IMG/VR virus record: IMGVR_UViG_3300023181_000382 | Coordinates: 1-48,322 of that record | DNA: 48,322 bases | DNA from: a virus | Reading direction: 5' to 3' (one strand) | In this document: positions 1 to 48,322 of the stretch, piece by piece | Numbering within the stretch: the stretch's first letter is position 1 | Layout of the letters: each line of letters starts with the position of its first letter | Notes under the pieces: generated by a model | What the model was told of the DNA's origin: nothing | The model's database searches: none | Seen by the model: only the letters and a program-made list of their open reading frames with translations | Translations under genes and position numbers: made by a program

Positions 1-279
1 ATGACAAAGATAAACAAAAACAAACAAAGCGAAAATGTGCAGATGCATAATGGTGTTGTCATCTTCGATCTGTTGGATAGATTTCTCCCGAAAAGCTATG
101 CATCGGAAGCCGTAAGGCGCCTTTCTCTAAAAGGTCTCGACATCTCAAAAGATGCAGTTCGAAATACGCGCCATGATCGCTACTCTACATTTAAGAACCA
201 AATTCTTGCTGTATTGCTTGAAATGGCGAATGAGGAAAAGGCCGCTATCGAAGCATTAAATTCAACAGTAACCAAATAA
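1..279 (+). CDS. Small basic protein, possibly DNA-binding
   Basis: A 92-residue protein rich in Lys and Arg. After a polar, Asn/Lys-rich first 12 residues the rest reads as alpha-helical. The stretch around residues 35-60 (Ser-Glu-Ala-Val-Arg-Arg, then Ile-Ser-Lys-Asp-Ala-Val-Arg) has the spacing of a helix-turn-helix, but no family is recognised. It lies 12 bases ahead of a LuxR-type regulator and shares its terminator, so a regulatory role is plausible by context. The window starts on its ATG, so the promoter is not visible. Confidence 0.6.
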   Translation: MTKINKNKQSENVQMHNGVVIFDLLDRFLPKSYASEAVRRLSLKGLDISKDAVRNTRHDRYSTFKNQILAVLLEMANEEKAAIEALNSTVTK

Positions 280-10673: not shown

Positions 10674-10976
10674 ATGGAAAATTTTTTTATCGAATCAAAT
10701 TGCGATTTTGCATTGGTTCACATTCACCTCAATAATGAGGGTTTCGCACAACGTGAAGTTGTAAAGAACGACACAGTGATCACACTGTATAAAAATCGCT
10801 TGTACCAACAATGTTTGGGTACCGGAATTCGTTATCCCTATGTTCCAACGAATGCGGATCTACAGGCTACTGATTGGAAGTTGTTATTTTTTAAGGATAA
10901 AGCAAATGTCGCTACTGCAGCTATTCATCGAAACGCAATGAAAAATGATTTGTTGGAATATAAAAATCGATTTTAA
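10674..10976 (+). CDS. Hypothetical protein, weak DUF2829/Tad2-like ending
   Basis: A 100-residue protein, the last gene of the early plus-strand run, 74 bases after its neighbour. Residues 53-70 read GIRYPYVPTNADLQATDW; a W/Y-x-P-x-x-x-D-L-x-A-x-DW ending is the hallmark of DUF2829, a family that includes Thoeris anti-defence 2 (Tad2). The N-terminal half does not clearly match that family, so the relation is tentative. If true it would sequester a signalling nucleotide made by host defence. Otherwise a plain hypothetical protein. Confidence 0.5.
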   Translation: MENFFIESNCDFALVHIHLNNEGFAQREVVKNDTVITLYKNRLYQQCLGTGIRYPYVPTNADLQATDWKLLFFKDKANVATAAIHRNAMKNDLLEYKNRF

Positions 10977-11047: not shown

Positions 11048-11134
11048 CGGGGAGTACAGGATTCGAACCCGTGAACCAGTTGCCCGGTCGGTCGTTTAGA
11101 AAACGACTGCTTTCAGCCACTCAGCCAACTCCGG
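11048..11134 (-). tRNA. Type II (serine-like) tRNA with UCU anticodon and mismatched acceptor
   Basis: The 87-nt minus-strand sequence folds as a tRNA with long variable arm: D-arm GCT/AGC, anticodon stem GTCGT/ACGAC with loop TTTCTAA (anticodon TCT at 11098-11100), variable arm ACCGG/CTGGT with GCAA loop, and T-arm ACGGG-TTCGAAT-CCTGT. Long variable arm, D-arm sequence and a G at position 73 are serine-tRNA features, but UCU decodes Arg AGA/AGG. Acceptor pairs 3-7 are good (GGAGT/ACTCC); positions 1 and 2 are C opposite C. CCA is not encoded. A promoter lies just upstream and a terminator just downstream. It could be an altered functional tRNA or a decayed one. Confidence 0.8.
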
Positions 11135-11170
11135 AAAAATACCTTTGATACTTTCTCGGACCTGGTATTG

Positions 11171-11201
11171 CAAATATACACACAAATTACTCTGGTTGCA
11201 A
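11171..11201 (-). promoter_or_regulatory. Promoter for the tRNA
   Basis: On the minus strand TTG (11201-11199), 20 bases, then TATATTTG (11178-11171), an exact Bacteroidetes-type promoter. Transcription would start near 11165, about 30 bases before the tRNA 5' end. An imperfect palindrome (TTGGcAAAATT-AGT-AATTTTaCCAA, 11217-11241) lies further upstream, over the stop of the minus-strand gene. Confidence 0.75.
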
Positions 11202-12040: not shown

Positions 12041-12405
12041 AAAAGCCAGTAGCAGTATTATGCCAATTTGGATCGCCCGTTGCAGCACATTACCTGAATG
12101 ACGACGCGATCGATGTTTATATGTCCACTTATTTAACTCAAGGATTGGAAGGATCTATTTTGTTAAACATTCAAGTATTTGATAGTGACGACCGAACTGT
12201 CGAATATATGCAACAAGTGCCAAGTAAGAGAAGCAGGGTTTTTGTTTTCTTAATGACGGAACTGGAAGAGACAACCATCGAAAACTATAAAGAAACAAAA
12301 CACCAAATTTTAAAAGAATTGCAACAATCTGTGAATTATGAGTTTGTTGGTGTAAGCAAGCATTGGCGAGAGTTACAAGATCATTATTTTATAGTCTCAA
12401 TTTAG
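12037..12405 (+). CDS. Hypothetical protein
   Basis: A 122-residue alpha/beta protein with alternating hydrophobic strands (AVLCQFGSPV; SILLNIQVF; RVFVFLM) and a helical TTIENYKETKHQIL segment. Overlaps the upstream gene by 4 bases and ends 2 bases before the SRAP start. No family recognised. Confidence 0.6.
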   Translation: MKKPVAVLCQFGSPVAAHYLNDDAIDVYMSTYLTQGLEGSILLNIQVFDSDDRTVEYMQQVPSKRSRVFVFLMTELEETTIENYKETKHQILKELQQSVNYEFVGVSKHWRELQDHYFIVSI

Positions 12406-12407
12406 AA

Positions 12408-13091
12408 ATGTGCAACAGGAAGAAATTAGAGTCCGACCTGGAAAAACTAGCAAAAAGATATGGTGCTGCGATAGACCAGTTACGTATTGAGGTGACGCAA
12501 CAACAGTATGCCTTTGACCACGACATATGCCCGATCATAAGATCAGAAACGCCTGATACCATCGACACAAATTTTCATTGGGGATTAGTGCCATCACATT
12601 GGAGCGGCCCGATAGAAAAGATATGGAACAGCACTTATAACGCGAAGCTCGAATATCTTCAGAAACGGAGTTCCTATAAAAATATCACGCACCAGCGTTG
12701 CCTGGTGCCAGCGACATCTTACTTTGAATACCATTGGAACGACCCCAAAGGGAAAACTAAAACGCTTTACGAGATCTGGCATCCGGACGCGAAAATATTT
12801 ACGCTTGCCGGATTGTATTCAACTTATCTTGATTACGACGGCTCGACGTACAATTCGTACACCGTTTTAACAACTGAGGCAAATGAACGGATGAAATTCG
12901 TGCACAATAAAGACGCCGATAAAGATTATCACAGAATGCCGTTGATGATCAATCCCGACGACGAACGGCAGTGGCTCGACACAAAAATTCCATATTTGGA
13001 TTTTGGATTTCCTAATTACAAACCAAAGTTGGTTGCAGAGCCCGTTCCAGGGCAGGACAGTCCGCCCGCACCACAATTATCACTTTTCTGA
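12408..13091 (+). CDS. SRAP (YedK/HMCES-like) abasic-site protein with clamp motif
   Basis: A 227-residue SOS-response-associated peptidase-like protein. SRAP proteins bond covalently to abasic sites in single-stranded DNA through Cys2 and shield forks. Start 12408 gives Met1-Cys2-Asn-Arg, as the chemistry requires; the longer frame from 12363 would bury the Cys. Other active-site residues are present: N78 (YNAKLE), E107 (SYFEY) and H175 (YHRMP). The last five residues are QLSLF, a consensus beta-clamp-binding peptide after a Pro-rich linker, suggesting delivery to replication forks. Third gene of a short unit. Family call is strong; clamp binding is inferred. Confidence 0.9.
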   Translation: MCNRKKLESDLEKLAKRYGAAIDQLRIEVTQQQYAFDHDICPIIRSETPDTIDTNFHWGLVPSHWSGPIEKIWNSTYNAKLEYLQKRSSYKNITHQRCLVPATSYFEYHWNDPKGKTKTLYEIWHPDAKIFTLAGLYSTYLDYDGSTYNSYTVLTTEANERMKFVHNKDADKDYHRMPLMINPDDERQWLDTKIPYLDFGFPNYKPKLVAEPVPGQDSPPAPQLSLF

Positions 13092-44302: not shown

Positions 44303-46488
44303 ACCTTATAATTTCAAGCAATCCGATAAATAATAAAGGAGAAGCCACACCTGAATTTCAGGACTGGGGTCCGCTGCCTAATCCTTTTATAAACGAAATT
44401 TTCTATTTTCCAAATCTGGGACTTGTTCCGGTAATGGAAACAATCGTTTTTAAGATTAAAGATTTTTTCCCATTACCGACGATTTATCCAATACGGCTGT
44501 GGGCATATCAAAGTTATCACAGCGGTAATACTATTAACTGGGTAAACCCGACAAGTTATATGAATCTTGGTTATCCAAACGCGATGGGTTTTCCAATTGC
44601 GTTGGTTGAAAACAATAAGCAATTTAGTTTCACACCGGTACTTCAAAACTTAAATCTATTAACGCCTGGACAATATTCATTTTATCATTATTTCAAAGTG
44701 CAAGTCCTTCAGGACGGAAATTGGTTAGATTTGGGAAGCGCGTCTGATCGGATGTTTGAATATCGAATAAGATTAACGGTGAAAAATCAACCGGTATTTA
44801 TAAGTCCAAGCAATATTCTCATGCGCCATACCTATGGAAATCCATTACCTGCAAGAGGTATTACGATTAGCGGTGATAACTGGACGGTAGTCGGTGACCC
44901 TAAAATTATTTTGTCTAGTAGTTCGATGGGATCCGTAGTTACTCAAATTACAGATGCAACAGGAACGTACCAAAAAGTCACAAATACTTCGGGAATTTCC
45001 GCAAGTTTATCAATTCAACTAAGTGATTTTTACGATCAAATTGGCGTTTTTGATCCAACTGTTCTTCAGATACAACTCAAAGTAATTGCTGGAACTTCTA
45101 CCATTGTCGGATACATTAACATAAGCGTTGAAGTTCTGATGCCGGATACATTAATTCTCAGCCCCAACACATTGATGTTTAATGCAACAAAGGGGTTTTC
45201 TGAAGCACCGGCTCAGCAGATTAATTTTCTTTGTGCCGGCGACTACATTATTTCAGCCTCACCTTGGCTCATAACTGAAATTAGAGAAGTCACTGTTCAA
45301 GGCGTTACTTCAGAAAAACTCTTCGTCCATCCCATACCGACACTTAATATGTCTGCCGGAATATATACCGGATTTGTTTCGTTGACGTCGATCATTAATG
45401 GTGTCGAACAAACTTTGACAACCGACGTCATTTACAATCTGTCGGACTTTATACAATCTCCCTATCAACAGGATGAAATTGCTTTTACTCTTGACCAGAA
45501 ATTCTTTCAGTTGTCATCTTCGAACACCGATGTATATTTTCAGGTGACTTCGCTTATTACAACATTCGATTTTTTCACAAACAATCAAAAGCAATTTCCA
45601 ATTGCTGAAAAGTTTATTCCGTTCAATGGCAGTGCAAAATTTAATATTGGAACTGTGATCCACGCTTTGATGAATCGTTTTGACAATGTAAATTCTAATG
45701 ATTTTCAGTGCGCCCCCGCAAAATTAGAGCTCTCAGTTGCAGAAAAGAAAATTTCTGATAGTTCCGTTATACGAGAAATCAGTGCCTATCAAGTTTTATT
45801 TGTTGCCGGTTTGGGAAGAAATATGTCAGGGTCTGGTTTTTTAGAATTTAATCCAAAGGCAAAACGGGTGTTATCCACCTCATACGCATATCTGAACATT
45901 TTATTAGATGGCTCTTTTAAACTCGCTACTAAGAAAAATGGCGTTGAAATATCGAGCGTTGTTCTTTTTAGCCAAGGTCCAAGCATTGTTTGTAAAAAAT
46001 TCTCTTTTGCAAATAATGTTGAAGGCGATGTGATAGAATATCTTCTGCTGGATCAATCTGACGCCATAGTTTCTTCAAAAACATATATCGTATTTCCTGT
46101 ACAAAGAAAATCCAATTTAATTGTTTGGGAAAATGAATTTTTATTGCAGGATGTGGTTGATTGTACCGGTGGATTTTCGATTAAATCTGAATTTATTACC
46201 CAGTCCCAAAAATTATACACCAACCTGGTTGAAGCTTTAGAAATACTTGATACTACGAAAGACGTCAAACTAATTATAAATACCGGATGGTTACTAAATA
46301 CCGATATCGATTCAATTGAAAGCCTGATGATGGCAAAACGTGCTTGGCTCGACCATTCAAACGGGACAATAAATCTTCGACCGGTTGCAAAATCTATTGT
46401 CAACGTGGACAGCGATCGCGAGCTTATCGAATATGCGATAGAATTTGAAATAAATAAAAAATATGGCCAGGAAACTTATACACTCTAA
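44299..46488 (+). CDS. Tail protein, possible distal tail component
   Basis: A 729-residue beta-rich protein in the slot after the tape measure, where distal tail or tail-tip proteins lie. Residues 160-400 look like two or three Ig/BACON-type beta-sandwich domains (for example FVSLTSIINGVEQTLTTDV). No enzyme motif, no signal peptide. The end overlaps the next gene by 26 bases. Confidence 0.65.
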   Translation: MNLIISSNPINNKGEATPEFQDWGPLPNPFINEIFYFPNLGLVPVMETIVFKIKDFFPLPTIYPIRLWAYQSYHSGNTINWVNPTSYMNLGYPNAMGFPIALVENNKQFSFTPVLQNLNLLTPGQYSFYHYFKVQVLQDGNWLDLGSASDRMFEYRIRLTVKNQPVFISPSNILMRHTYGNPLPARGITISGDNWTVVGDPKIILSSSSMGSVVTQITDATGTYQKVTNTSGISASLSIQLSDFYDQIGVFDPTVLQIQLKVIAGTSTIVGYINISVEVLMPDTLILSPNTLMFNATKGFSEAPAQQINFLCAGDYIISASPWLITEIREVTVQGVTSEKLFVHPIPTLNMSAGIYTGFVSLTSIINGVEQTLTTDVIYNLSDFIQSPYQQDEIAFTLDQKFFQLSSSNTDVYFQVTSLITTFDFFTNNQKQFPIAEKFIPFNGSAKFNIGTVIHALMNRFDNVNSNDFQCAPAKLELSVAEKKISDSSVIREISAYQVLFVAGLGRNMSGSGFLEFNPKAKRVLSTSYAYLNILLDGSFKLATKKNGVEISSVVLFSQGPSIVCKKFSFANNVEGDVIEYLLLDQSDAIVSSKTYIVFPVQRKSNLIVWENEFLLQDVVDCTGGFSIKSEFITQSQKLYTNLVEALEILDTTKDVKLIINTGWLLNTDIDSIESLMMAKRAWLDHSNGTINLRPVAKSIVNVDSDRELIEYAIEFEINKKYGQETYTL

Positions 46489-48322
46489 ATTTGAAATTGA
46501 TCTTGGAAATTTCCAAATATCTGATGCTACCGAAAATAATTGGTTTTCAGATACATTTTTTTCCAGGTATTCTTTTCCATTCAATATTGACCTTGAAGAA
46601 GACCTCGACGTTGCTCTTGGATTTATTTCACGATATAATACTTTTCCGGAAACATTATACCCTTTGAAGTATGTTGAGGATAACGTAATTTCCGATGCTG
46701 AGTTTGAGGTTCAGGAAGTTAATGACAATGTATTGCAATGCGTTTATGAAACTGGATTGGACGAATTTCCGTCCTGGAATAAAAAGCTTTCAGAATTATC
46801 ACTTTTCAAAATTGTGTTGCCGCACGGCACGACGATCTATCAGTATGCGGCTGCGATGGTAAATAAAGTTTGGCCAGAAGTTAATTTTTGTTTTCCGGCT
46901 GTTCACATTGATTACATAGATACTGAAGATAATTATTGGCTCGATTTCGAAGGAACTGTAAATAATTACAAAGATGATGCATTCATAGAAAATGTTTTTG
47001 TAGGCAATAATTCGATAAACAAAAATATTATGCAGCCTGCAATTTTCGCATTATACATTCTTCAAAGAGGATTTGCTGATGAAGGTTTTGAATTAGCCGG
47101 CGATATTCTTGGCGATCCAACCATGCAAAAATTAGCTTTTTTTTCACCAACAGAATATTATAAAAAAAGAGAGCCAATTGAGATTCCAGTTTTTAATGAT
47201 TACACACATCCAATCGGTCAAGTTCTTGGGTCTTTAGGTTATATCCCTGTCCATCTAACAATCGTGGATGTTCCAATATGGGGTAGGTATCTCATTGTTG
47301 GAACAATTTCGACTTACGGAGTGTATGGATCCAATACGCCTCCGGAAAATGGACCGACCGCAGGTATTGCTTTTAACGATACGCTGATCTGGAGTGCGCC
47401 TGATCTCGTTTCTAATAATTCATGGAACATTGAAGTTGAATTCATTTCAACATCTTCACCCATCAACAATTTAAGTGTAAGGGCAAATTCTGTACATGGG
47501 TACACTAATGAAATTGGAACATTCTATAAGAGTATCGAATTAACAGTAGTACTGATAGAGGAATATGACGTAGACGGCCATGGCATCCCGTCAATCCAAA
47601 ATGAAGATAAAGTAGATTTAACCAAAGCCGTGGCAGATATGACATTTGGGGAATATGTTAAGGTCATTAAGAATTGGTTTAATTACGATTTCACACCGGT
47701 CGGAAATCAAATTGTTATGAATCGGATCCAGGACGAAATTAATTTTGTCGACGCTATGGATCTTTCACATTGGGAAGTTAAAAATCCTACCAGAAGATTT
47801 CAAAAAGGAATGTCATTTAATTTGAAATTTCGCGACGTTACAATTCCGAACGAAGCCACCTACAAATACACTTTTAAGCAGGTTTATCAATCGGCAGCGG
47901 GTTATGTGTATGAAAACTTCAAAACAGATACTAAAACTTCGATCATTGAAATTGATGCAATACCATTGCCCTTATTGGTCCGAAACGAAATCAAAACAGC
48001 CCATTGCTTCGAAGATGATCAGTCAAAGCTTTATGGGTTGTTGTACACCGGGATCGTTGCAGGGAAAAACATGTCACAGGATCCTGCGCCAATTGAAATC
48101 CCTGCCGTGCATTTAAAATATTGGTGGAAATGGTTTTCTTTCCGGATCAATTCAATTGGATTCAAATGGGTTTTTAAAGCTTTTGGATATCATATTTCAA
48201 ATTTACACGTAAAGCGGAAAGTGTTTGCTTATGGCAATTACCATCTAATCAAATCACTTATCCGGACTGAAATTAAGCCAGACATATTTGAAGTTGAAAT
48301 TGACACAGAATCACTCAAATAA
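46463..48322 (+). CDS. Tail protein, likely tail-tip or baseplate hub
   Basis: A 619-residue protein whose N-terminus (LIHSKFEIDLGNFQISDATENNWFSDTFFSRYSFPF) matches a recurrent Bacteroidetes phage tail protein style. N-terminal and C-terminal (520-619, Trp/Phe-rich with KWWWKWF-like WWKWFSFRI) domains flank a beta-rich centre. Its stop is the last base of the window, so the following gene is not seen. Role inferred from position after the distal tail gene. Confidence 0.7.
   Translation: MARKLIHSKFEIDLGNFQISDATENNWFSDTFFSRYSFPFNIDLEEDLDVALGFISRYNTFPETLYPLKYVEDNVISDAEFEVQEVNDNVLQCVYETGLDEFPSWNKKLSELSLFKIVLPHGTTIYQYAAAMVNKVWPEVNFCFPAVHIDYIDTEDNYWLDFEGTVNNYKDDAFIENVFVGNNSINKNIMQPAIFALYILQRGFADEGFELAGDILGDPTMQKLAFFSPTEYYKKREPIEIPVFNDYTHPIGQVLGSLGYIPVHLTIVDVPIWGRYLIVGTISTYGVYGSNTPPENGPTAGIAFNDTLIWSAPDLVSNNSWNIEVEFISTSSPINNLSVRANSVHGYTNEIGTFYKSIELTVVLIEEYDVDGHGIPSIQNEDKVDLTKAVADMTFGEYVKVIKNWFNYDFTPVGNQIVMNRIQDEINFVDAMDLSHWEVKNPTRRFQKGMSFNLKFRDVTIPNEATYKYTFKQVYQSAAGYVYENFKTDTKTSIIEIDAIPLPLLVRNEIKTAHCFEDDQSKLYGLLYTGIVAGKNMSQDPAPIEIPAVHLKYWWKWFSFRINSIGFKWVFKAFGYHISNLHVKRKVFAYGNYHLIKSLIRTEIKPDIFEVEIDTESLK

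What the first reader, a model, noticed from the sequence alone, without database searches (positions are those of the whole stretch)
11048..11201. Serine-type tRNA carrying a UCU (Arg) anticodon
The tRNA has serine identity features (long variable arm, G73, serine-like D-arm) yet the loop TTTCTAA places TCT as anticodon; the host serine isoacceptor with a related loop would be GCT. Seryl-tRNA synthetase ignores the anticodon, so a charged product could put Ser at AGA/AGG or read AGY by extended wobble. Acceptor pairs 1-2 are C-C mismatches, so it may instead be a decoy, a regulatory fragment or a decaying gene. A near-perfect promoter and a terminator flank it, implying real expression.
Basis: partly seen in the sequence, partly recalled or inferred. 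Interest (0 to 1): 0.72.

Follow-up and report, generated by a model that had tools for sequence, protein, structure and literature searches.

The report
Broken serine tRNA with arginine anticodon
A flavobacterial-type phage carries a serine-type transfer RNA gene whose anticodon has switched to an arginine one and whose amino-acid end has lost its first two base pairs, so it is most likely a disarmed or decaying gene and not a tool for rewriting the genetic code.

Summary
At 11048-11134 (-) lies a class II tRNA with anticodon UCU, discriminator G73 and C-C mismatches at pairs 1-72 and 2-71. It has a Bacteroidota-type promoter upstream and a strong terminator hairpin downstream. Its body is serine-type: 58 bits on a Ser profile against 14 on an Arg profile, and 51 with the anticodon masked. 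Serine at AGA is not supported: at 72 AGA positions of phage proteins, homologues have Arg (37%) or Lys (24%) and almost never Ser (1.5%). The damaged acceptor is exceptional: of 131 distinct Ser-type tRNAs collected here, 128 pair at all seven positions, two at six, and only this one at five. One two-base deletion in a GGGG run would explain both mismatches. A Ser-type UCU tRNA is rare but not unique: Inbricusvirus and three bacterial genomes hold versions with intact acceptors, and tRNASer(UCU) made in yeast is toxic (PMC6827378). Best reading: a former phage tRNASer(GCU) with a wobble-base change and a disabling acceptor lesion, probably transcribed but scarcely charged. An assembly error in the G run cannot be excluded.

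The parts
11048..11134 (-). class II (serine-type) tRNA gene with UCU anticodon, G73, 5-bp effective acceptor stem
11098..11100 (-). anticodon TCT (Ser relatives have GCT at this place)
11128..11134 (-). 5' acceptor strand CCGGAGT; positions 1-2 (CC) mismatch with C72, C71
11049..11055 (-). 3' acceptor strand ACTCCCC; its complement would be GGGGAGT
11171..11201 (-). Bacteroidota-type promoter-like site TTGC-N19-TATATTTG
   Evidence: consensus from PMC9723704
11006..11029 (-). intrinsic terminator hairpin AAAGGCGCC-TTGC-GGCGCCTTT with T run

Best explanation
This is a phage-borne tRNASer gene of the GCU (AGY-reading) kind. Its wobble base has become U (anticodon UCU), and its acceptor stem has lost the two outermost pairs, most simply through a 2-nt deletion in a GGGG run that drew two leader C residues into positions 1-2. 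Shown: serine-type body, UCU, the lesion, AGA read as Arg in this phage, promoter-like and terminator signals. Inferred: the gene is transcribed, but 5' processing, CCA addition and serylation are poor, so little or no Ser-tRNA(UCU) forms. The lesion therefore disarms what would be a toxic Arg-to-Ser mistranslating tRNA, or the gene was already inactive and is now drifting. Either way it is a recently disabled gene, not a working code-changing tRNA.
For: Ser profile 58.1 bits (51.3 with anticodon masked) against 14.3 for Arg; median of Ser members 56.8, best Arg member on the Ser profile 26.5. Seven published bacterial Ser determinants (PMC9976931 Table 1): G73, C72, R4-Y69, C11-G24, large variable arm and G30-C40 are met, G2-C71 is not. 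The Arg determinant A20 is absent (C20). Acceptor with 5 of 7 pairs is unique among 131 distinct Ser-type tRNAs. Complement of the 3' acceptor strand is GGGGAGT, and the gene reads ...TTTTTCC|GGAGT, as expected after loss of two of four G. AGA positions: R 37%, K 24%, S 1.5% of 337 aligned cells; Ser codons give S 27-46%. tRNASer(UCU) could not be transformed into yeast unless damped by a second mutation, and acceptor change C1:G72 also damps Ser mistranslation (PMC6827378). The related Duneviridae phages 1H, 2A, laban6-1 and FPSV-D15 carry no tRNA at all, so the gene is dispensable in this group.
Against: All other stems are perfectly paired, and the promoter-like site and terminator look intact, which is more than random decay predicts. 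Serine identity rests mainly on the variable arm and G73, both present, so weak charging remains possible. No second copy of this locus was found, so the lesion could be an assembly error. No RNA or charging data exist.
Confidence: 0.6

Rival explanations
1. The acceptor lesion is a sequencing or assembly error (under-called G run); the real gene is an intact, chargeable tRNASer(UCU) like those of Inbricusvirus, inserting some Ser at AGA/AGG.
For: Both mismatches disappear if one run of G is two bases longer; intact-acceptor Ser-type UCU tRNAs exist in Inbricusvirus and three MAGs.
Against: Losing two bases from a run of four is unusual for Illumina assemblies (general knowledge); the window is a single record with no replicate. 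Even then AGA must still be read mostly as Arg.
Confidence: 0.17
2. A deliberately weakened mistranslator: the lesion tunes charging down so that low-level Ser for Arg occurs during infection, to the phage's benefit.
For: Second-site acceptor changes damp, and do not always abolish, Ser mistranslation in yeast (PMC6827378); transcription signals look intact; a Ser-type UCU tRNA recurs in unrelated genomes as an extra gene beside normal Arg-UCU and Ser-GCU.
Against: No benefit is known; two C-C mismatches are harsher than a pair inversion; related phages lack the gene; nothing shows Ser at AGA.
Confidence: 0.1
3. A decoy or counter-defence RNA: uncharged UCU anticodon stem-loop that absorbs a host anticodon nuclease or a tRNA sensor.
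For: Anticodon arm, D, variable and T arms intact while only the charging end is damaged; phage tRNAs are proposed to counter tRNA-degrading defences (PMC10865867).
Against: No UCU-specific nuclease is known here; neighbours gave no defence or anti-defence family above cut-off; no conservation in relatives.
Confidence: 0.07
4. An AGY reader: unmodified U34 reads all four AGN codons, so the tRNA helps with AGU/AGC serine codons.
For: The nearest relatives are Ser-GCU tRNAs that read AGY; the phage uses AGY at about 16 per 1000 codons.
Against: Bacterial U34 in this split box is normally modified to favour A/G (general knowledge); reading AGA as Ser as well would damage conserved Arg sites.
Confidence: 0.04

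Closest known systems
Phage-encoded tRNASer(GCU), e.g. Escherichia phage TanjaMuster_Bas81, Klebsiella phage Carvaje
   Same: class II body, G73, same D and T arms; about 82% identity over the gene
   Different: anticodon GCU, seven acceptor pairs, CCA encoded, often beside a normal tRNA-Arg(UCU)
Ser-type UCU tRNA of Inbricusvirus inbricus (MG018928, MK962632)
   Same: class II, G73, UCU anticodon, best on the Ser profile (51.5 bits)
   Different: intact acceptor GGGAGCU/AGCUCCC and encoded CCA; unrelated podovirus
Ser-type UCU tRNAs in Pseudomonadales, Bdellovibrionales and Sungiibacteriota MAGs (L039, L038, L036)
   Same: class II, G73, UCU, Ser profile 52-55 bits
   Different: intact acceptors; cellular genomes; extra to normal Arg-UCU and Ser-GCU in two of three
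Engineered mistranslating tRNASer(UCU), yeast (PMC6827378, PMC8473984)
   Same: serine body with arginine anticodon, activity damped by a second mutation
   Different: engineered, eukaryotic; damping at position 9 or 26, not two C-C mismatches
Allo-tRNAs (review PMC7609411)
   Same: natural Ser-type tRNAs with non-Ser anticodons
   Different: 8/4 or 9/3 acceptor/T organisation; the window gene is an ordinary 7/5 layout with two broken pairs

Membership tests
bacterial tRNASer (class II) | long variable arm, 3-bp D stem, G73 | tested here: met
bacterial tRNASer (class II) | Ser-type sequence by isotype profile | tested here: met
   58.1 bits Ser, 18.3 next best; 51.3 with anticodon masked
bacterial tRNASer (class II) | C72, R4-Y69, C11-G24, G30-C40 (PMC9976931) | tested here: met
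   read from sequence
bacterial tRNASer (class II) | G1-C72 and G2-C71 pairs | tested here: not met
   C1-C72 and C2-C71
bacterial tRNASer (class II) | serine anticodon (GCU or NGA) | tested here: not met
   UCU
tRNA-Arg(UCU) | A20, class I variable loop | tested here: not met
   C20 and long arm; Arg profile 14.3 bits
tRNA-Arg(UCU) | C35, U36 | tested here: met
   anticodon UCU
codon-reassigning tRNA (AGA to Ser) | AGA codons fall at conserved Ser positions | tested here: not met
   S 1.5%, R 37%, K 24% of 337 cells
allo-tRNA | 12-bp acceptor branch as 8/4 or 9/3 | tested here: not met
   7/5 layout with two broken pairs
[quoted passage not shown]
   integrase and att site lie outside the record; a related phage seems to use tRNA-Arg(UCU) as attB and to restore its 3' end

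The most novel reading that the evidence does not exclude
A naturally attenuated serine-inserting tRNA for AGA/AGG, kept by a phage to cause low-level Arg-to-Ser mistranslation or to bait an Arg-tRNA-targeting defence during infection.
Probability: 0.12. Interest if true: 0.7.

Novelty: new member of a known kind. Interest (0 to 1): 0.3.

Why it matters
Ser-type tRNAs with an arginine anticodon are toxic when made in yeast, yet a few phages and bacteria carry them. This case is the only one found here with a broken acceptor, and it suggests how such a gene may be tolerated: by disabling the charging end. It also warns that anticodon-based annotation ('tRNA-Arg') can be wrong for phage tRNAs. 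If the gene were shown to be charged, it would be a natural mistranslating tRNA in a virus.

Tried and rejected
Wholesale AGA-to-Ser reassignment: rejected by the column test. Arg-accepting chimera: rejected on the isotype profile and lack of A20. Leu or Tyr class II origin: rejected; neither profile is among the best scores for the window, and G73 is not the A73 that Leu and Tyr use. Sister copies in IMG/VR: an exact 32-base search found none, and the neighbouring genes led only to L012, whose contig has no such tRNA. Counter-defence neighbourhood: the gene at 10674-10976 gave only a sub-threshold Tad2-like hit, PADLOC gave none, and an AlphaFold model was too poor to use (mean pLDDT 47.6), so this was dropped. 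Whether the Sungiibacteriota genome with a Ser-type UCU tRNA and no class I Arg-UCU found has recoded AGA: the one conserved AGA site checked (DnaX position 8) aligns with Arg, so no sign of it. The first isotype-profile runs failed on stray characters in the input and were redone. An acceptor-pair count with a one-base offset was discarded and redone.

Full report
Observation. The window holds one tRNA, 11048-11134 on the minus strand. ARAGORN names it tRNA-Arg from the UCU anticodon; Rfam gives 41.3 bits, above the cut-off of 29. Its parts, read directly: acceptor CCGGAGU with ACUCCCC, a 3-bp D stem, a fully paired anticodon stem around UUUCUAA, a long variable arm with a GCAA loop, a normal T arm, G73, no encoded CCA.

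Surroundings. The gene lies between genes on the other strand, with its own promoter-like site TTGC-N19-TATATTTG, of the kind described for flavobacteria (TAnnTTTG; PMC9723704), and a 9-bp terminator hairpin (z -3.15). Five promoter-like sites of this pattern occur in the window against 1.1 expected, so this is suggestive only. The window is a whole IMG/VR virus record that begins on a start codon and ends on a stop codon, so it was probably trimmed. Its tape-measure protein is 41-45% identical to those of Flavobacterium phages 1H, 2A, FPSV-D15 and laban6-1 (Duneviridae), none of which has a tRNA.

Isotype. Profiles built from some 1,000 tRNAs found in the loci fetched here give 58.1 bits for Ser, 18.3 for Cys, 17.6 for Ile and 14.3 for Arg; with the anticodon masked, Ser is still 51.3. 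Ser members have a median of 56.8, and no Arg member exceeds 26.5 on the Ser profile. About two thirds of the Ser set are GCU tRNAs chosen by pattern, a bias to keep in mind. Of the bacterial serine determinants listed in PMC9976931, all but G2-C71 are present. Arginine's A20 is absent.

Does AGA mean serine here? Proteins of the window were aligned by tblastn to Duneviridae and IMG/VR relatives. At 72 AGA positions (337 aligned cells) the relatives have Arg 37%, Lys 24%, Ser 1.5%. For comparison, CGN codons give Arg 38-51% and Ser 3-4%, and Ser codons give Ser 27-46%. AGA is read as arginine, and several AGA sites are Arg in every relative. General recoding is excluded; rare mistranslation would not be visible in this test.

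The acceptor lesion. Among 131 distinct Ser-type tRNAs with GCU or UCU, 128 have seven acceptor pairs, two have six, and the window alone has five. The complement of its 3' strand is GGGGAGT, while the gene reads TTTTTCC-GGAGT. Loss of two G from a run of four would create both mismatches in one step (inference). The same would result from an under-called run in the assembly. No replicate of the locus was found.

How rare is the combination? Real Ser-type UCU tRNAs with intact acceptors are those of Inbricusvirus (identical in two separate isolates) and of three MAGs. In two of these MAGs they are extra to normal Arg-UCU and Ser-GCU tRNAs. The UCU switch is thus real and recurrent, though rare.

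Mechanism. Serylation ignores the anticodon, so an intact tRNASer(UCU) would put Ser at AGR codons. In yeast no transformants were obtained with tRNASer(UCU) unless a second mutation weakened it (PMC6827378), and an Arg-to-Ser tRNA with such a mutation slows growth (PMC8473984). The window gene carries a lesion that removes G1-C72 and G2-C71. I conclude that it is a disarmed or decaying tRNASer, probably transcribed, scarcely processed or charged. Whether the anticodon change or the lesion came first is not known. A weak mistranslator, a decoy, and an AGY reader remain possible at lower probability, as does an assembly error.

Verdict. Observation confirmed. Interpretation partly supported: serine identity and decay, yes; Ser at AGA, no evidence and general recoding excluded. 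A new member of a known kind, of modest interest.

Noticed in passing
L024:53-237 and L026:8855-8981 (IMGVR_UViG_3300045971_000856): The related phage contig holds a 127-bp direct repeat that starts in the last 17 nt of a normal tRNA-Arg(UCU), with host-like tRNA genes before it: it probably integrates at the 3' end of host tRNA-Arg(UCU).
   Followed up: partly
window 10674-10976: Small gene convergent with the tRNA shows a sub-threshold match to Tad2-like (PF11195, E 0.0026, 18.7 bits against cut-off 25); 60% identical to a homologue in L012. The structure model was too poor to test it.
   Followed up: partly
L008:1500-1590 and MK962632.1:14261-14348: Inbricusvirus carries an intact Ser-type tRNA with UCU anticodon, annotated tRNA-Arg; identical in a Pseudomonas and an Achromobacter isolate.
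   Followed up: yes
L036:7623-7711: A Sungiibacteriota MAG has a Ser-type UCU tRNA near ftsZ, and no class I tRNA-Arg(UCU) was found among its 30 tRNA matches; AGA at DnaX position 8 still aligns with Arg.
   Followed up: partly
L033:429-525: A 135-kb phage contig with 11 tRNAs in the stretch held has a class II UCU tRNA with U73 that scores almost equally on Ser (31.6) and Arg (27.5) profiles.
   Followed up: no
window 1-279 and 46463-48322: The record begins exactly on an ATG and ends exactly on a stop codon, so it was probably cut at gene borders; by comparison with phage 1H the integrase would lie just outside.
   Followed up: no
window 12363-13091: SRAP (SOS response associated peptidase, PF02586, E 2.8e-35) encoded close to the tRNA.
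   Followed up: no
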